From assembly GCA_913061265.1 (NCBI GenBank), contig CAJXVS010000004.1:62001-126000 (forward strand): 64,000 bases of DNA, read 5' to 3'. Each line of letters starts with the position of its first letter. Position 1 is the first letter of the stretch. The notes under the pieces were generated by a model. The model was not told where the DNA came from, searched no databases, and saw only the letters and a program-made list of their open reading frames with translations. Origin of the DNA: an uncultured Halobacteriovorax sp. (lineage in GTDB: Bacteria > Bdellovibrionota > Bacteriovoracia > Bacteriovoracales > Bacteriovoracaceae). Of this stretch, positions 590-10,843 are shown in pieces. Both the position numbers and the translations under genes were made by a program.

Positions 590-1411
590 CTAATGAAAGT
601 TAGTACTCGGTCTTAAGAATCCTTCTTTAAGAAACTTAGCTTTTGAATGAAATGAAACCAGTAAGCTAAGTCTTTCAGATTCAGGGGTCATCCTCCCACC
701 ACAGTGTAAAACATGCCCTGGATCAAACATTAAGATCGTTCCTGAAGGACCAGATCCATTTTGAACGTCGTAGCCTTCTATTACGTCAGAGATGACCTTG
801 TCTTCTAACATTTCAGCCCCCCAGGTTTTCCTTTTTGAGAGAAACTCATCTGTTTTTTTCTTATCAATAAGTAAACTCTCACCAGATCCTTTAGGCATAT
901 CTATGACATTTATAAAAAAATGAAGTGACCTAAAATCTCCTCTATCTAGATGAAATTGAGGGTAGCCTGATTTTTTAAAATTTGGCCACGCCCACCACAG
1001 CTCAATAACGCTGAGGTAGCCTGAGCCTCCTATATAGTCTTCAGCAATTTTTGCTAATCCAGATTCCTTTATAAACTCATTGATAAAGCCTGAGTCTACA
1101 AGTTCCTTGCTCCTAGCGACATATCGAGTCTGCTTACTTTTACAACGCTCTTCCTCAGAGTCCTTTAATTTTAAAAGCTCTGAACGAGTATTTTCCCAAG
1201 AAGAATCGCCCATTATCTTATTAAGGTCTCCAGTATAGAAACCTTCAGTAAGAATTTTTTTAGTGATATCGGTCTTCTTATTTTTTTGACGAAAAAGACA
1301 ATTAAAAACATAACGAGGTTCTTTCATAAAGCTTTTTATCAAACACCAGTGCTTGTAGTTAATGGAGCTATATATAAATTTTCTAAGAGAGTTTTTAATT
1401 CTTACTTTCAT
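590..1411 (-). CDS. Putative 2OG-Fe(II) dioxygenase, PhyH-like
   Basis: A 273-residue protein that looks like a non-haem iron, 2-oxoglutarate-dependent oxygenase of the phytanoyl-CoA hydroxylase type. The facial triad is visible: HLD at residues 154-156 and a distal His in PGHVLHCGGR (H236), followed about 11 residues later by an Arg (R247) that could bind 2-oxoglutarate. There is no signal peptide, so it should be cytoplasmic. The substrate is unknown. It stands alone, with about 60 bp to the acyltransferase gene downstream and about 150 bp of AT-rich noncoding DNA upstream. A second, clearly different PhyH-like gene lies near 10.1-10.8 kb. Confidence 0.65.
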   Translation of the reverse strand: MKVRIKNSLRKFIYSSINYKHWCLIKSFMKEPRYVFNCLFRQKNKKTDITKKILTEGFYTGDLNKIMGDSSWENTRSELLKLKDSEEERCKSKQTRYVARSKELVDSGFINEFIKESGLAKIAEDYIGGSGYLSVIELWWAWPNFKKSGYPQFHLDRGDFRSLHFFINVIDMPKGSGESLLIDKKKTDEFLSKRKTWGAEMLEDKVISDVIEGYDVQNGSGPSGTILMFDPGHVLHCGGRMTPESERLSLLVSFHSKAKFLKEGFLRPSTNFH

Positions 1412-4220: not shown

Positions 4221-4252
4221 CGTGCACCCTTTCATGGGTGCACGTTCTTTTT
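4221..4252 (+). terminator. Rho-independent terminator
   Basis: Perfect 9-bp stem CGTGCACCC / GGGTGCACG with a 6-nt loop (4221-4244), followed by TTCTTTTT. It ends the transcript of the small exported protein and insulates the following acyl-carrier cassette. Confidence 0.9.
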
Positions 4253-4275: not shown

Positions 4276-4302
4276 TTGTTTAATCCACTCAGAGTATATA
4301 AT
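4276..4302 (+). promoter_or_regulatory. Candidate promoter of the acyl-carrier/MBOAT cassette
   Basis: A perfect -10 element TATAAT lies at 4297-4302, with a weak -35-like TTGTTT at 4276-4281 (short, 15-bp spacer). Transcription would start near 4309, just upstream of the GTG start at 4326. This argues against the in-frame TTG at 4302, which lies inside the -10 element. Inferred from sequence only. Confidence 0.45.
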
Positions 4303-4325
4303 TGATCCATACAAGGATCATTTAC

Positions 4326-4568
4326 GTGAATCAAGACGAAATTATAAATTCTCTCAATAAAGTTTTTACTGAACTCTTTGATGAAGAGATCGAACTTAGT
4401 ATTGAAACCACGGCAGATGATGTTGATGATTGGGATTCTCTTAATCATATGAACTTGATCTTAAAGATTGAAGAAGTCTTTGAAGTTAAGTTTTCAAACA
4501 AGCAGGTGGCGGGTCTTCAAAATATTGGAGATTTGGTTAGCCTAATAATCGAAAAGAAAAAATCATGA
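4326..4568 (+). CDS. Acyl carrier protein (DltC-like position)
   Basis: An 80-residue carrier protein. The phosphopantetheine attachment motif is WDSLNHMN, with the serine at about residue 38, surrounded by the usual acidic helices. The GTG at 4326 is preferred over a TTG 24 bp upstream: AAGGA sits 9 nt before it, 80 residues is the normal carrier length, and the -10 box overlaps the TTG. It would carry an activated acyl or aminoacyl group as a thioester. It opens a six-gene cassette and overlaps the next gene by 4 nt (ATGA). Because an AMP ligase, SGNH protein and MBOAT follow, it most likely serves envelope acylation rather than fatty-acid synthesis. Confidence 0.85.
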   Translation: MNQDEIINSLNKVFTELFDEEIELSIETTADDVDDWDSLNHMNLILKIEEVFEVKFSNKQVAGLQNIGDLVSLIIEKKKS

Positions 4569-5539
4569 ATGATGCTGATTTTCAAAAAGGGGCTCATACC
4601 CTCTTATTAACTTGTGGCCAATTACTAAAGACAGAAATGGCCTTGATCCTAACTGATGGAGCGACTAAAGAAGTTGGCGAGATCCTTGAAGCCTTTGCTA
4701 TCAAGCATGATTTAAAAGTGAAGCATATCTTAATTGACTCCCTTGAGATTCACGGAAAAGAGCCAGATGAGACTATAGCTAAAGAGATGCTGGATTATGA
4801 TTTGATCCTAGGTCTTACTAGTTATTCCATGGCCCATACTCAGGCCAGAAAGGCCGCGACGGATAAAGGTGCTCGTTACTTAAGCCTTCCTGATTATGAC
4901 TTATCCGTCTTAGCCTCTCCCGCTCTTCAAGCTGACTTTGAGGCTCAAGAAAAAGTGGCCGCAAAGATCTCTTCAATCTTAGAAGGGGCCTCAAGCGCTG
5001 TTGTCGAATCCGCTCTTGGGACTAAATTAAATTTAGATTTGAGAACGAGGCCGGCCAATAATTGTGTTGGGATCTTAAGAGAGAAAGGAAGCTTGTCCTC
5101 TCCTCCAGATATGGAAGTCAATATAGCACCCATAGAAAATGGCAGTCATGGAAAGGTTTGTATTGATGGAAGTATTCCTCATCCTCTCTTTGGCGTTTTA
5201 GAGAAGCCTGTTTACCTTATTGTTGAAAATGGTGCGATCACTTCCTTTGAGAGTGAAGATAAGAAACTTGTTGATGACTTAAATACTTTATTTGATAAGT
5301 TTCCTGCTAACGCTAAGATCTTAGCTGAGTTTGGTATTGGACTTAACCCAAAAGCAAAACTATGCGGAAGGATGCTTGAAGATGAAGGCTGCCTTGGAAC
5401 CATTCATTTTGGATTTGGCTCTAACGCTACTATTGGTGGGATGAACTCTGTTTCCTTTCATGTCGATTTTATCATGAGACACGCGACTATAATCATAGAT
5501 GATCAAAAGATCATGGAAGATGGAAAGCTTCTTATTTAA
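4565..5539 (+). CDS. M29 aminopeptidase-like metalloprotein in acylation cassette
   Basis: A 324-residue protein resembling leucyl aminopeptidase / aminopeptidase T (peptidase family M29). The C-terminal metal-site pattern is present: Glu in LAEFGIGLN (about residue 252), Glu in MLEDEGCLGTIHFGFG, His in the same block (about 280) and the HVD pair near 298-300. The 4-nt overlap with the carrier-protein gene and direct abutment to the ligase gene (stop TAA then ATG) show translational coupling, so it belongs to the cassette. Family members remove N-terminal amino acids or, in relatives such as NicX, do other metal chemistry. A role in supplying or recycling an aminoacyl substrate is only a guess. 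No signal peptide: cytoplasmic. Confidence 0.75.
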   Translation: MNDADFQKGAHTLLLTCGQLLKTEMALILTDGATKEVGEILEAFAIKHDLKVKHILIDSLEIHGKEPDETIAKEMLDYDLILGLTSYSMAHTQARKAATDKGARYLSLPDYDLSVLASPALQADFEAQEKVAAKISSILEGASSAVVESALGTKLNLDLRTRPANNCVGILREKGSLSSPPDMEVNIAPIENGSHGKVCIDGSIPHPLFGVLEKPVYLIVENGAITSFESEDKKLVDDLNTLFDKFPANAKILAEFGIGLNPKAKLCGRMLEDEGCLGTIHFGFGSNATIGGMNSVSFHVDFIMRHATIIIDDQKIMEDGKLLI

Positions 5540-6991
5540 ATGACAAATCATCCCTTTCTCAACCACTTTAATAGTAAGAAGAAGTCCTTTAGTTTAAAAG
5601 AATTGAGCACAGGCAAAGAGTTTACAAGCCTTGAGTTACTAGAGAGTTCAAGAGTTCTTGCTACTGCTTTAGCATCGAGTTTTAAGATCGGTAGAGCAGA
5701 CTTGGTTGTGACTTATTTTGATAACCGTCATGAATCAATCCTAATTAACTTAGCTCTTATGCACTTAGGGGCGATCATTGTCCCCATCAATCCAGATTTT
5801 CGAGAATCAGATATAAAGGCGATAACCTCTCAGTTTGATTGTAGGCACTATTTATTCTTTCCAGAAAATAAGATGGAAAGGGAGCCTGCTCATTGCCTAG
5901 ACGAAGACTTCTTCTCTAAGGCAAAAAAGGAACTTCCGATTGAAAAGATCTTCCAATCGATTGATCTTCCCTACTTTCAGATTGTCTATTCATCAGGAAG
6001 TTCAGGTATCCCTAAGGGAATCCCTGTTAATTTTGATAAGCTCTATCAAAATGCCGTAGCTTTCTCAAAGAGTCATGGCATAACAAGTGATATAAGAATG
6101 TATAATATACTTCCTCTAGCCTATCTTGGCGGTTGGTATAATATGTTCTTAATTCCTTTTATCAACGAAGGAAGCATCATCCTTGACTCGCCCTTTGGAT
6201 CAAAGAATCTTTATAGTTTTTGGCAGACCATTCTTGATGAATCTATCAATTCGATTTGGCTAAACCCCATGATGATGTCTATGCTGACTAAGGTTGGCCT
6301 TGATGAGGATATCTCTACGGAAAGAGTTTCTAAGCAAATCAAATGGGGCTTCGTAGGTATGGCCCCTCTAAACTCTGTCACCCACAGTCAGTTTAAGAAG
6401 TCTTTTGAAATTGATCTTCTTGAGAACTATGGTTTAAGTGAAACCTTCTTTTTAAGCAGCATTATCGAAAGTACAAAAGAGGCCAAGGGCTCTCTAGGTG
6501 AAGTCATTGAAGGGATTGAAATAAAGATCATTGATGGAGAGATCTTAGTTAAGTCTCCCTTTATGTTTGATCATTATTTTAAGAACCCTACTCAAAGCGC
6601 AGAATCTTTTCAAGATGGCTACTTTAAGACCGGTGATATCGGTAAGGTCGATGAGGCCAATAGGCTCTACATCCTAGGGAGAAAGAAGAACATCATCATC
6701 CGTGGCGGAATAAATATTTCTCCAAAAGAAGTAGAAGCACAAATACTAGAGATCCCCGAGATTCAAGAAGTTGTGATCTTAGGTTTTGAGCATGAATACT
6801 ACGGAGAATGCTTAGGTTGTTTAATCAAAGTTAAAGATGAGAAACTAACTCTCAAAGAAGTTAAGAAAAAGTTAAAGAATGTACTCTCTTCTATAAAGGT
6901 TCCAGATAAGATCCTTTTGGTGGATGAGTTTCCAATAAATGCTTCCGGCAAGTTTGATCTTGTCGCTATAAAAAAGATGTTTGATGAATAA
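5540..6991 (+). CDS. AMP-forming acyl/aminoacyl ligase (ANL superfamily, DltA-like position)
   Basis: A 483-residue ANL-superfamily adenylating enzyme. Motifs in order: P-loop YSSGSSGIPKG (about residues 149-159), NYGLSET (about 295), TGDIG (about 364), hinge region GRKKNIIIRGG (about 380) and the catalytic Lys in NASGKFD (about 467). It would activate a carboxylate with ATP and load it on the carrier protein made two genes upstream. Length and motif set fit both acyl-CoA synthetases and DltA-type enzymes; the acid-binding pocket cannot be read without a structure model. Starts immediately after the M29-like gene; the next gene starts inside its last codons. Confidence 0.85.
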   Translation: MTNHPFLNHFNSKKKSFSLKELSTGKEFTSLELLESSRVLATALASSFKIGRADLVVTYFDNRHESILINLALMHLGAIIVPINPDFRESDIKAITSQFDCRHYLFFPENKMEREPAHCLDEDFFSKAKKELPIEKIFQSIDLPYFQIVYSSGSSGIPKGIPVNFDKLYQNAVAFSKSHGITSDIRMYNILPLAYLGGWYNMFLIPFINEGSIILDSPFGSKNLYSFWQTILDESINSIWLNPMMMSMLTKVGLDEDISTERVSKQIKWGFVGMAPLNSVTHSQFKKSFEIDLLENYGLSETFFLSSIIESTKEAKGSLGEVIEGIEIKIIDGEILVKSPFMFDHYFKNPTQSAESFQDGYFKTGDIGKVDEANRLYILGRKKNIIIRGGINISPKEVEAQILEIPEIQEVVILGFEHEYYGECLGCLIKVKDEKLTLKEVKKKLKNVLSSIKVPDKILLVDEFPINASGKFDLVAIKKMFDE

Positions 6992-7931
6992 AGAATCCCA
7001 TAAGTCTTTATTAATTTCCTCACTCGGGCTTTGTCTTTTAACTAGCATCTTCTTTCTTACCTATCAATATCACAACAATAAAAATCATAAGATCAATTAT
7101 ATTAATAATAGTTATCTAAACTTAGACAACCACCTCTACTTTTCATCAGCTTCTAAGAATAAAACGATTCTCTTAGGAAGTAGCGCTGCTAGTGGAAATA
7201 ATATTCCCGTATCCACTACAATCGTGGATTTTATGAATAGCCTAGATACTGAAAAAGAATCATTCTTTAATATGGGCCTTATGGAAGCCACTCTCATTGA
7301 TTCAATGGCCATCCTTGCAGATCTTAAGGCCGATCCTCCTAAAAGAATCATTTACGCTTTTAACCCTGGTAATTTTAGAAGCCTCTATGGAAACTATAGT
7401 CTTAAGAACTCAAGGGCCCTACTCCCTTTTCTCCCTTCAGAGGTTAGGAAGGCTTTAGAAGATCAGGCCAAGAGAATGATCAATGGCCCTCTTGATGACT
7501 TACTAGGAATCTTAAACCTGCCTTCACCATTATTATTAAAGACCGCCACAGCTCTTTATCATCTTCGTTTAAAGCTCTTTGGTCCTCAGTTTAATAAGAA
7601 TTTCTTTCAACTAAGAAGTTCAGCTGTCTATGACTTTAAAAGCATGGCCATGCAACTAGATCTCTTAATGAAGTTATCTGAGAGTATGGGATCAACTCTC
7701 TCTTTTTACTTCGAGCCCATCAACTTTATCGATAATGAGGATAAAGAGAAGTACAGAGAACTTGCTCATCAGACTAAGAACTATTTAAAAAAACGGGGTT
7801 ATCACTTTAAGGACTATTCGGAGTTCTTTAGAAAAGACCCTGAGTACTTTCTCGACTTTGTTCACTTGACTCCTAAAGGTAACTCCCTTTTGGCCAATGA
7901 GCTATTTAAGGAGCTAGAAAATGCCCTTTAA
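6984..7931 (+). CDS. Membrane-anchored SGNH/GDSL-like protein (DltD-like position)
   Basis: A 315-residue protein with one N-terminal membrane segment (about residues 7-27), leaving the rest in the periplasm. SGNH hallmarks are visible: block I TILLGSSAASGN (Ser near residue 64) and block V DFVHLTPKGN near the C-terminus (Asp/His near 290-293). This anchor-plus-SGNH arrangement is that of DltD and of AlgJ/AlgX-like acyl-transfer partners. The ATG at 6984 lies inside the end of the ligase gene. It likely works with the MBOAT encoded next, which overlaps its last 11 nt. Acyl transfer at the membrane surface is inferred from family and context. Confidence 0.75.
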   Translation: MNKESHKSLLISSLGLCLLTSIFFLTYQYHNNKNHKINYINNSYLNLDNHLYFSSASKNKTILLGSSAASGNNIPVSTTIVDFMNSLDTEKESFFNMGLMEATLIDSMAILADLKADPPKRIIYAFNPGNFRSLYGNYSLKNSRALLPFLPSEVRKALEDQAKRMINGPLDDLLGILNLPSPLLLKTATALYHLRLKLFGPQFNKNFFQLRSSAVYDFKSMAMQLDLLMKLSESMGSTLSFYFEPINFIDNEDKEKYRELAHQTKNYLKKRGYHFKDYSEFFRKDPEYFLDFVHLTPKGNSLLANELFKELENAL

Positions 7932-9123
7932 TAGTTTAAGCTTCTACCTTTTTGTTTTTTCGGTTTATCTTTTTTCAAAGATCTTTAAACTAAAAAAAGT
8001 GAATGCGGCCTTCCTTTTAACGCTTATAGGAACACCCCTTTATTTTATCTACGCTAAGAAGCATTTTATCATCCTTCTCGCCCTCGTTGGCCTGGCCTGT
8101 GTTCTCGTCTCGTGGATCTATAAAAAGAAAAGTAAGCTCGCTCTTATCTCTTCTCTTCTTATGGCCCTCATACCTTTTCTCTTTTTCAGGTATAGCTTAG
8201 TATCAAATGCCTTTATCGAACTGATTCCCTTTGTGAGTACTTTGAAAAGACCTGCCATCTTTTTAGGCATGGCCTTTCTCTTTTTAAGAATAGTCTCTTT
8301 ATTCACAGATACATTAGAAGACGAAGAGAAGCCAAGCATCAAAGAAATCTTTTGTTACCTCCTCTACTTTCCAAGCTTTATATCAGGCCCTCTAGAGAGG
8401 ATGGAAGACTTTAGAGAAAAACTAAATACGGAGTATGACTATAATCTTGAAGATCTTTTTGAGGGTGTCTACCGTATTATAAAAGGCTCTTTTAAGAAGG
8501 TTGTCATTGGAAATACACTTCTCAATCTAAGTGTTAGTAATCTTTCTATGGAGAATCTTTCACAGGTTCCAAGCCTCTATTTAGTCCTTAGCCTTTATCT
8601 TTATACCTTAACCATTTACTTTGATTTCTCAGGCTACTCAGACATAGCCATTGGTATAGGGCGCATCTTTGGGGTTAAGATTCCAGAGAACTTTGGCGCT
8701 CCCTTTAAGGCACGAAACATTCAAGAGTTCTGGAATAATTGGCATATTAGCTTTATGCATTGGCTGCGGGATTATCTTTATTACCCCTTCTATCGCCTCC
8801 TGCATAAACTCAAGATTAGAGCGACTAGCCTACTCATGGGAGGCAGTTTTCTCATTACCTTTACCATCGCCGGTCTATGGCATGGAGACAGTCTTAAATA
8901 CCTTTATACGGGGCTATATTACGGAGTCTGCTTTGCTTTCTGGGTCGCCTATAAGTCACTCTTAGAAGAGAAATTAGGAAAGAAAGAAGTTAAGAATAAG
9001 TATCTTAAAAGTAATGCGATTAGATACCTTGCTATCTTTATCACTCTAAATATCTATACTTTTAGTTTGATTTTTTATGTTGAAGCCTATGCACTAGTGG
9101 AGGAACTATGGAACCGAATCTAA
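7921..9123 (+). CDS. MBOAT membrane-bound O-acyltransferase (DltB/AlgI type)
   Basis: A 400-residue polytopic membrane protein of the MBOAT family. Diagnostic segments: FPSFISGPLERM, the re-entrant region ending in FKARNIQEFWNNWHISF (about residues 263-275), HWLRDYLYYPFY, and AGLWHG near residue 317, whose His is the usual catalytic residue. DltB and AlgI are the well-known relatives; they pass acyl groups across or at the membrane to a cell-envelope polymer. It overlaps the SGNH gene by 11 nt, and its 3' end overlaps a small downstream membrane-peptide gene by 16 nt, so all are probably one translational unit. Confidence 0.9.
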   Translation: MPFNSLSFYLFVFSVYLFSKIFKLKKVNAAFLLTLIGTPLYFIYAKKHFIILLALVGLACVLVSWIYKKKSKLALISSLLMALIPFLFFRYSLVSNAFIELIPFVSTLKRPAIFLGMAFLFLRIVSLFTDTLEDEEKPSIKEIFCYLLYFPSFISGPLERMEDFREKLNTEYDYNLEDLFEGVYRIIKGSFKKVVIGNTLLNLSVSNLSMENLSQVPSLYLVLSLYLYTLTIYFDFSGYSDIAIGIGRIFGVKIPENFGAPFKARNIQEFWNNWHISFMHWLRDYLYYPFYRLLHKLKIRATSLLMGGSFLITFTIAGLWHGDSLKYLYTGLYYGVCFAFWVAYKSLLEEKLGKKEVKNKYLKSNAIRYLAIFITLNIYTFSLIFYVEAYALVEELWNRI

Positions 9124-9224
9124 AGACCAAACCAATCATTTATAAAACAATAGCGATGATCATTATGTTGGCTCTTATCTTTTTATTTAAGGTTGGCGGC
9201 ATCGGGTTTCAATATAACTTATGA
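9108..9224 (+). CDS. 38-aa single-pass membrane peptide, DltX-like
   Basis: A short gene starting at the ATG at 9108, with a strong SD (GGAGG about 5 nt upstream), inside the last codons of the MBOAT gene. The product has a short basic N-terminus, one membrane helix (about residues 14-31, from AMIIMLALIFLF) and a short C-terminal tail ending GFQYNL. DltX of Gram-positive Dlt systems is likewise a tiny one-helix protein with a conserved C-terminal aromatic motif that includes a tyrosine implicated in acyl relay. The FxYN ending here matches that pattern in kind, though the usual residue after it is missing. The 3' end overlaps the convergent RraA-like gene by 6 nt. Confidence 0.6.
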   Translation: MEPNLKTKPIIYKTIAMIIMLALIFLFKVGGIGFQYNL

Positions 9225-9968
9225 TGCCACTTTGTGAGAGTTCATTTGATCGTTGCGTTCTGGTTCAGCACCAAACTTAATCCGCAGTAGTTCTTCATTA
9301 TCTTGAAATCTTTTAGGCAGTTTATCCATATGATTAAGATAATCTTTTTTGCAAATAGTTCTATCAGTATTCCAACCAAGGTCACTAATACAATAGTTCC
9401 AAACTTCTTCTTGAAGCCTTAAGCCTTTAAGCCTATTGAGCATGCTTTGGTTAAAGTAACATTCAGGAATTGAGACTACTCCAGTAGCGTCACAAACAAC
9501 TAAACTTCCAGCATACTTCTGCATCTTGATATTCTTTTTCTCATAAGGATATGGTGAAGTCTCTCTGTTAAAACAGCCAATAGGTGTATAACCTTGGCAC
9601 CACAAAGCGTAGTTTCTCTCTTTAATGACATCAATATCACGCATAAAGCCTTGGACAACAACGGCCTTTGCCTTTTTAACTTCGAGCATATATTTACAGA
9701 CGATATCTCCAAAGATGGCCTTGTTCTCACAGCCTTCAGTGAAGACCACAACAACTTCATCTTCTTCAATCAAATCGAGTTGAGTATGGAGGTAATAATT
9801 TGAATTGTTAGCTGTAAACAGGCACCGCATCTTTCCGATAACAAAGTCCGCTTCACTAACAGGATGAAGATGAGGAATAGCCCCAGTCTTTCCCATAGCA
9901 TCGGCAATCTCAGTCGATGACATCTTTTCTTTTTCAATATAATCTTTTAATTCTTGATAGAAATTCAC
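9219..9968 (-). CDS. RraA-like / HMG-aldolase-fold family protein
   Basis: A 249-residue protein of the RraA/4-hydroxy-4-methyl-2-oxoglutarate aldolase superfamily. Visible family features are STEIADAMGKTG near the N-terminus, the glycine/aspartate segment AIFGDIVCKYM, and AKAVVVQGFMRDIDVI, where the Arg-Asp pair occupies the usual metal/substrate position. Aldolase members bind Mg and cleave small keto-acids; RraA itself inhibits RNase E. Which applies cannot be told. The GTG start at 9968 has a good SD (AGAGGT, 5-nt gap). It lies about 110 bp downstream of the PhyH gene and may share its transcript. Confidence 0.65.
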   Translation of the reverse strand: MNFYQELKDYIEKEKMSSTEIADAMGKTGAIPHLHPVSEADFVIGKMRCLFTANNSNYYLHTQLDLIEEDEVVVVFTEGCENKAIFGDIVCKYMLEVKKAKAVVVQGFMRDIDVIKERNYALWCQGYTPIGCFNRETSPYPYEKKNIKMQKYAGSLVVCDATGVVSIPECYFNQSMLNRLKGLRLQEEVWNYCISDLGWNTDRTICKKDYLNHMDKLPKRFQDNEELLRIKFGAEPERNDQMNSHKVAS

Positions 9969-10081: not shown

Positions 10082-10843
10082 CTAGTAAAACAATCGTCTA
10101 TTGGGAAGTTGCTTAAGTATTTCAGTACTTGGCATGGCCTTGGGGTTTATAAATGAAGAAGACTTCTCAGTTCGAAGAGCAAAAAGTGGATCAAAAACAA
10201 AACGTTTTGGACTCACTCCGTATTTCTTTCCACGGTGGATAGCATGGGCAGAAAAAACTCGAACCTCTCCTCTTTTACAATCAAAAGACTTAGAGTTCAA
10301 TAAAGGTGAATTATTAGATTTCATGCGAACCTCAAACTCGTCCTCACTATCCCATCTCTTATGACTTCCTGGAACTAACTCAAAAAGCTCATCATCTATA
10401 AAAGGAATATGGAAGTGAAGGACTGGCTCATTTATAATGGCCTTCTTTTGATCTTCAACAGAGAGTCCCGTGTACTGAGTATCTCGGTGCCAATAACCAT
10501 CTTTTGAATGATCTTTAGGATTAAAAAAGACCTGAGAGCCTAAAAAGAAAGCATCTTTCCCGATAAGAGTTTCAATAAGATTCTGTATTTTATCAGAAGT
10601 AATAAACTTAAAAAGATCAATTCGATCTTGAGAATCAACGCAATCAAAGTGATCACTGAGTGTTAGATTATTTGAATTGATCATCTTATGCTTAAGATAT
10701 TCTTTATGATTAATCTCTAACCATCTTTGATGAGCTTTAGAGATGATGGGATAGATTGCTGATAGCTCAGCTTCAGAAAAGAAACTAGGGATAACGACAC
10801 AGCCCTCAGTTCCGAAAATGTCTCTTATCTTTGATTCTTTCAT
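10082..10843 (-). CDS. Phytanoyl-CoA dioxygenase (PhyH) family protein
   Basis: A 253-residue 2-oxoglutarate/Fe(II) oxygenase. Iron ligands: HRD in YWHRDTQY (about residues 139-141) and a distal His in SAHAIHRG (about 214), followed by an Arg for 2-oxoglutarate. The block ELVPGSHKRWD is typical of PhyH proteins. The family includes halogenases and hydroxylases, among them ectoine hydroxylase, so the substrate is open. Its start is only 16 bp after the aquaporin gene's stop, and both follow a two-component system on the same strand, which suggests co-transcription. It has no signal peptide. Confidence 0.75.
   Translation of the reverse strand: MKESKIRDIFGTEGCVVIPSFFSEAELSAIYPIISKAHQRWLEINHKEYLKHKMINSNNLTLSDHFDCVDSQDRIDLFKFITSDKIQNLIETLIGKDAFFLGSQVFFNPKDHSKDGYWHRDTQYTGLSVEDQKKAIINEPVLHFHIPFIDDELFELVPGSHKRWDSEDEFEVRMKSNNSPLLNSKSFDCKRGEVRVFSAHAIHRGKKYGVSPKRFVFDPLFALRTEKSSSFINPKAMPSTEILKQLPNRRLFY

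What the first reader, a model, noticed from the sequence alone, without database searches (positions are those of the whole stretch)
4276..9224. Dlt-like envelope acylation cassette with an added M29 peptidase
Six genes overlap or abut: carrier protein, M29 peptidase homologue, AMP ligase, anchored SGNH protein, MBOAT and a one-helix peptide. Seen directly: gene order, overlaps and family motifs. Known: Dlt systems use DltA (ligase), DltC (carrier), DltB (MBOAT), DltD (SGNH) and DltX to put D-alanine on teichoic acids. Inferred: this cell lacks classical teichoic acid, so the machinery may acylate another envelope polymer (LPS, peptidoglycan, a surface glycan).
Basis: partly seen in the sequence, partly recalled or inferred. 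Interest (0 to 1): 0.8.

Follow-up and report, generated by a model that had tools for sequence, protein, structure and literature searches.

The report
Dlt-like relay with a swapped loader
This bacterium carries a six-gene machine that resembles the one Gram-positive bacteria use to decorate their cell wall with D-alanine, but its charging enzyme is of a different kind and is paired with a metallopeptidase-like protein; its relatives charge the same machine with enzymes derived from tRNA synthetases, so the charging step appears to be interchangeable.

Summary
The six genes are real, co-directional and overlapping (4326-9224). The transfer half is a Dlt-type relay: carrier protein with its phosphopantetheine serine, DltB-like MBOAT with both histidines, membrane-anchored GDSL/SGNH protein with its Ser and Asp-x-x-His, and a 38-residue one-helix microprotein ending GFQYNL. 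That is a DltX-type acyl-shuttle tail (published motif FXYXXF), one residue shorter. Six relatives end in GFQYEF. In sampled genomes of the phylum, long MBOATs have this tail fused; short ones lack it and nearly all have the microprotein instead.

The loading half is not Dlt. The ligase is acyl-CoA-synthetase-like and lacks the Asp of amino-acid adenylation enzymes. The 'M29 peptidase' lies between M29 peptidases and the dioxygenase NicX: it keeps the M29 metal ligands but not NicX's full iron-ligand set. Ligase, M29-like gene and carrier also occur together in two marine alphaproteobacterial genomes without a detected MBOAT. In relatives of the cassette the loader is a homologue of amino acid:[carrier protein] ligases (tRNA-synthetase derived), or in one case DltA-like.

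So this is a new variant of the Dlt/MBOAT-SGNH kind with an exchangeable loader. Cargo and acceptor are unproven; a surface polysaccharide is the likeliest acceptor.

The parts
4221..4244 (+). terminator-like hairpin that closes the upstream gene; the cassette starts after it
   Evidence: 9-pair stem followed by TTCTTTTT; terminator-like hits in the region are not more frequent than in shuffles
4326..4568 (+). carrier protein (DltC-like role, sequence closer to acyl carrier proteins), start GTG, DxWDSL with Ser as phosphopantetheine site
   Evidence: Asp-Ser invariant in an alignment of 10 including DltC
4565..5539 (+). M29-fold metalloprotein (between M29 aminopeptidases and NicX); metal ligands E255, E274, H281, H299, D301; no signal peptide apparent in the sequence
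   Evidence: 42-43% identical relatives beside ligase and carrier genes in L005 and L006
5540..6991 (+). adenylate-forming ligase of acyl-CoA-synthetase type, the proposed loader of the carrier; pocket motif YLGGWYN, no amino-acid Asp
6984..7931 (+). SGNH/GDSL acyltransferase with N-terminal membrane anchor (DltD-like role); Ser68, Asp292, His295 in the numbering from TTG 6981
   Evidence: alignment of 7; GDSL matches in relatives
7921..9123 (+). MBOAT (DltB-like), short form without fused C-terminal motif; His275 and His321
   Evidence: PF03062, DltB structures 8jem/6bug E about 4e-31, NCBIfam DltB model 194 bits, below its cut-off of 375
9108..9224 (+). 38-residue one-helix microprotein ending GFQYNL, DltX-like acyl shuttle with the acceptor Tyr third from the end
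   Evidence: motif role from PMC12148441

Best explanation
A Dlt-type envelope acylation relay with a non-Dlt loading module. Proposed steps: (1) the acyl-CoA-synthetase-like ligase adenylates a carboxylic acid without an alpha-amino group and loads it as a thioester on the carrier protein; (2) the M29-fold metalloenzyme supplies or trims that acid or the loaded acyl group in the cytoplasm; (3) the MBOAT moves the acyl group from the carrier through the membrane to the tyrosine of the microprotein's C-terminal FQY motif; (4) the microprotein tail hands it to the serine of the anchored SGNH protein; (5) the SGNH protein esterifies a sugar of an envelope polymer, most likely a surface polysaccharide. 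Steps 3-4 follow from anatomy and established Dlt/Pat chemistry; steps 1 and 5 are inferred from family and context; step 2 is a guess supported only by gene linkage. No step has been shown experimentally for this cassette.
For: Overlapping gene order. MBOAT aligned to DltB over nearly its whole length, with both histidines invariant. SGNH catalytic residues invariant in seven sequences. Carrier serine invariant. Microprotein tail GFQYNL against GFQYEF in six relatives, always at the MBOAT gene's end, while long MBOATs carry FxYxxF fused. The Tyr of this motif is the acyl acceptor in DltX and PatA (PMC12148441). Cassette inside polysaccharide clusters in G010, G016, G093; flippases of the polysaccharide type present in the own genome. 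The ligase groups with the ligases of the alphaproteobacterial modules (85/90), apart from DltA and from the best ordinary CoA ligases of the phylum, and shares YLGGx(Y/F)N with them.
Against: No biochemistry. The window cassette is not itself inside a polysaccharide cluster. The microprotein tail ends in NL rather than EF and is one residue shorter than FXYXXF. The window SGNH protein alone has no significant Pfam match, and no usable structure model could be made. The role of the M29-like protein is not shown.
Confidence: 0.72

Rival explanations
1. A plain D-alanylation (Dlt) system in a Gram-negative cell, with the ligase acting as DltA on D-alanine.
For: Same functional parts; dlt genes are known in Dickeya and Pectobacterium, probably acting on LPS (PMC5541007); a relative, G016, has a DltA-like ligase with the FDxS Asp.
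Against: The window ligase has YLGGWYN in place of FDxS, groups away from DltA (100/99) and scores far better against acyl-CoA synthetases.
Confidence: 0.07
2. A lipid pathway: the ligase and carrier handle a fatty acid that the MBOAT transfers to a lipid or to lipid A.
For: The ligase belongs to the superfamily that holds fatty-acid CoA ligases; many eukaryotic MBOATs act on lipids (general knowledge).
Against: The MBOAT is DltB-like and paired with an SGNH protein and a shuttle microprotein, the arrangement of polymer acylation; the closest relatives have amino-acid-type loaders.
Confidence: 0.1
3. The relay still transfers an amino acid: the ligase loads an amino-acid precursor or an N-capped amino acid, and the M29-like enzyme removes the cap as an aminopeptidase, so that the cargo equals that of the relatives with tRNA-synthetase-like loaders.
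For: M29 metal ligands kept; the alphaproteobacterial ligase is fused to a class I aminotransferase; relatives use amino acids, judged by homology of their loaders.
Against: No capping enzyme in the operon; the tyrosine beside the M29 metal site is missing; the pocket lacks the amino-group Asp.
Confidence: 0.11

Closest known systems
Dlt system (DltA, DltB, DltC, DltD, DltX)
   Same: Carrier protein, DltB-like MBOAT, anchored SGNH protein, separate one-helix microprotein with FxY tail, operon layout
   Different: Loader is not DltA; M29-like gene present; SGNH protein too distant for a DltD match; tail FQYNL one residue shorter; relatives lie in polysaccharide clusters
PatA/PatB and other MBOAT-SGNH acylation pairs (AlgI type)
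   Same: MBOAT and SGNH pair, acyl-Tyr shuttle motif
   Different: There the motif is fused to the MBOAT and the donor is acyl-CoA; here the motif is on a separate microprotein and a carrier protein is encoded
Amino acid:[carrier protein] ligases (class II tRNA-synthetase homologues, e.g. Bll0957)
   Same: A homologous gene sits beside the MBOAT in G010, G037, G038, G093, G035, G280, G069, G216
   Different: Not found in the window genome; its place is taken by the ligase and M29-like pair
M29 aminopeptidases (AmpT, AmpS, PepS) and NicX dioxygenase
   Same: Fold (TM 0.56-0.70 and 0.83); M29 metal ligands E, E, H, H, D kept
   Different: Shorter than M29 peptidases, no Tyr at the site; NicX iron ligands H265 and S302 replaced by E255 and G283

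Membership tests
Dlt system | DltB-type MBOAT with catalytic His | tested here: met
   the NCBIfam DltB model gives 194 bits, below its curated cut-off of 375, so related but not an equivalog
Dlt system | carrier protein with phosphopantetheine Ser | tested here: met
Dlt system | DltX microprotein: one helix, C-terminal FXYXXF | tested here: inconclusive
   one helix and FxY present, but GFQYNL is a residue short and ends in Leu
Dlt system | DltD (PF04914) | tested here: not met
   no significant DltD match for the window protein; one relative E 0.07; hhalign to one DltD found nothing
Dlt system | DltA, an amino-acid adenylating ligase with the FDxS Asp | tested here: not met
Dlt system | acceptor is teichoic acid, cargo D-alanine | not testable with these tools
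   needs chemistry
MBOAT-SGNH acyl-shuttle pathways | MBOAT plus SGNH protein plus C-terminal Tyr motif | tested here: met
M29 peptidase | five metal ligands | tested here: met
   E255, E274, H281, H299, D301, by alignment
M29 peptidase | Pfam PF02073 match above cut-off | tested here: not met
   window none at E up to 10; L005 22.2 bits, below 27; L007 40.3 bits, above
M29 peptidase | Tyr beside the metal site | tested here: not met
   Ala or Ser at that place in the sequences; AmpS has GSAY
NicX dioxygenase | Fe ligands H265, S302, H318, D320 | tested here: not met
   H265 aligns with E255 and S302 with G283; H318 and D320 are kept

The most novel reading that the evidence does not exclude
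One lineage has a Dlt-like relay whose transfer half is constant and whose loader is exchanged: tRNA-synthetase-derived amino acid:[carrier protein] ligase, DltA-like ligase, or the acyl-CoA-ligase plus M29-fold pair seen here. This would give the amino acid:[carrier protein] ligases, whose biological role is described as unknown, a role as suppliers of envelope aminoacylation, and would mean the window cell puts a different acyl group on its surface polymer.
Probability: 0.6. Interest if true: 0.8.

Novelty: new variant of a known kind. Interest (0 to 1): 0.62.

Why it matters
The transfer chemistry of MBOAT-SGNH relays is known, but the description I read says that MBOAT-SGNH pathways other than Dlt lack both the carrier and the DltX-like microprotein (PMC12148441). 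Here is a set of genomes with both but without the rest of Dlt. The relatives link amino acid:[carrier protein] ligases, whose role was stated to be unknown (PMC9437257), to envelope modification, which is directly testable. The window member suggests that the cargo can be changed by swapping the loading module.

Tried and rejected
DltA-type ligase: rejected by pocket motif and tree. NicX-type dioxygenase for the M29-like gene: the iron ligands are not all kept. Malonyl-CoA-synthetase-like substrate: that enzyme is the best PDB match, but I found no basis in the alignment for predicting the substrate, so none is claimed. M29-like relatives on plasmids that I looked at lie in catabolic clusters and did not help. 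No relative in viral contigs. Single-sequence model of the SGNH protein was useless (pLDDT 36). hhalign of the SGNH alignment with one DltD gave nothing. The synteny check showed that the same-genus locus in G037 and the matching place in the window's own genome share five flanking genes, but the cassette is missing there, so the window cassette is not in the place it has in its genus relatives. One PDB search was wasted on a meaningless query.

Full report
OBSERVATION. The window is G000:C4:62001-126000 of a 3.97 Mb genome in 12 contigs. Six genes run on the + strand without gaps: carrier 4326-4568, M29-like 4565-5539, ligase 5540-6991, SGNH 6984-7931, MBOAT 7921-9123, microprotein 9108-9224. 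The MBOAT is the only one in the genome.

TRANSFER HALF. The MBOAT matches PF03062 and, of solved structures, only DltB (8jem, 6bug, E about 4e-31, residues 12-386). Its two histidines, H275 and H321, are invariant in an alignment with six relatives and a DltB. The SGNH protein has no Pfam match alone, but in an alignment of seven the G-x-S (Ser68), Asp292 and His295 are invariant, and five of seven members match a GDSL model weakly, three match GDSL_2 (best 2e-6) and one matches DltD at 0.07. The carrier has the DxWDS motif, with Asp-Ser invariant across ten carriers.

THE MICROPROTEIN. It is MEPNLKTKPIIYKTIAMIIMLALIFLFKVGGIGFQYNL. In Dlt and Pat systems a tyrosine in a C-terminal FXYXXF motif takes the acyl group from the MBOAT and gives it to the SGNH serine; DltX carries it on a microprotein, other MBOATs at their own C-terminus (PMC12148441). 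Among MBOATs fetched from the phylum, those of about 430 residues or more end in the motif, and those of about 390-411 residues do not, with one exception of 408 residues that has it. Of the short ones, six close relatives have a 33-53 codon ORF at the gene's 3' end finishing in GFQYEF, and three more distant ones finish in NFQYVQ, GFIYVNF and QFVYFNF. One short MBOAT (G069) has no such ORF within 450 bases. In 365 kb, 12 of 2,774 small ORFs carry the C-terminal motif and 10 of the 12 are these nine plus the window's. In the family of this cassette the tail is FxYxF (FxYxL in the window), one residue shorter than FXYXXF.

CONSERVATION IN RELATIVES. A search of 291 genomes of the phylum, neighbourhoods of ten hits and a tree give a clade of seven short MBOATs (support 98/97: window, G037, G038, G035, G010, G016, G093), with G280 as sister (95/88). 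All seven have SGNH, MBOAT, microprotein and carrier together. In G010, G016 and G093 the cassette is next to flippase, glycosyltransferase or pyruvyltransferase genes of polysaccharide synthesis.

LOADERS DIFFER. In G010, G037, G038, G093, G035 (cut by a contig end), G280, G069 and G216 a class II tRNA-synthetase-like gene lies beside the MBOAT. In all, 11 of the 291 genomes have such a gene at the threshold used; in the other three (G194, G204, G243) no adjacent MBOAT was listed. A profile of six of them matches amino acid:[acyl-carrier-protein] ligase 1 (4h2w, 2e-37) better than serine-tRNA ligase (3w3s, 5e-31), and an invariant cysteine, glutamate and cysteine (C211, E258, C361) align with the same residues there; that these three are zinc ligands is from my own knowledge. 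The role of such ligases has been called unknown (PMC9437257). G016, nested among these in the MBOAT tree, has instead a ligase that matches NRPS adenylation domains and DltA and keeps the FDxS Asp. The window genome has no tRNA-synthetase-like loader (that search had no internal positive control, but the same type of query found the gene in its relatives). At the place where its genus relative G037 has the cassette, five flanking genes are conserved but the cassette is absent.

WINDOW LOADER. The ligase matches acyl-CoA synthetases (malonyl-CoA synthetase 4fuq 9e-36, MenE, oxalate-CoA ligase). Where DltA and G016 have FDLS and FDVS it has YLGGWYN, so the Asp that holds an amino group is missing. 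In a tree it joins the ligases of L005 and L006 (85/90), apart from the nine best phylum hits and from DltA plus G016 (100/99); its own branch is long, so this placement is moderate evidence. L005 and L006 are marine alphaproteobacterial genomes in which the M29-like gene, a ligase fused to a class I aminotransferase, a carrier and an acetyltransferase-like gene lie in a row, with no MBOAT found in those small, probably incomplete genomes. The M29-like gene, this ligase and a carrier therefore look like a loading module of their own.

M29-LIKE PROTEIN. Its model (pLDDT 83) is closest to NicX (TM 0.83) and then to M29 aminopeptidases (0.56-0.70). By alignment it keeps E255, E274, H281, H299 and D301, the places of the M29 metal ligands (the ligand list of M29 is from my own knowledge), whereas NicX's iron ligands H265 and S302 are E255 and G283 here. 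Parts of the region 268-297 of the model are of low confidence, so the site rests on sequence alignment. It is a metalloenzyme by inference; its reaction is unknown. Within the class of 129 genomes only two distant matches occur outside the window.

MECHANISM AND LIMITS. The relay carrier to MBOAT to microprotein Tyr to SGNH Ser to polymer is strongly suggested by anatomy and by the published chemistry. The identity of the acid, the action of the M29-like protein and the acceptor polymer are not shown. The window's own genome has flippases of the polysaccharide type, so a surface polysaccharide acceptor is plausible.

VERDICT. A real, unusual member of the MBOAT-SGNH acylation kind, which probably works like Dlt but is not a Dlt system by the tests of loader and SGNH family. 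New variant of a known kind.

Noticed in passing
window 9219-9968 (-): RraA-family aldolase gene (PF03737) whose end overlaps the microprotein's end convergently; may or may not be related to the cassette.
   Followed up: partly
window 10082-10843 (-) and 590-1411 (-): PhyH-type oxygenase (PF05721) near the cassette; a second, similar-looking protein at 590-1411 has no significant Pfam match.
   Followed up: partly
L069 11450-12529 (-), across the window start: Acyltransferase-3 (PF01757) gene, another surface acylation enzyme family, about 4 kb upstream of the cassette.
   Followed up: no
L070 5398-7832 (G216): A tRNA-synthetase-like loader gene just upstream of a long MBOAT with the fused motif: the loader is also combined with the fused form.
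   Followed up: partly
L005 8951-11662, L006 8963-11674: Ligase and class I aminotransferase fused in one protein of 903 residues, between the M29-like gene and a carrier gene.
   Followed up: partly
L007 844-1809, L020, L022: Other M29-like proteins of about 320 residues without ligase or carrier beside them; in L020 and L022 they lie in catabolic clusters with PrpF/TcuA or DUF917/AroM genes.
   Followed up: no
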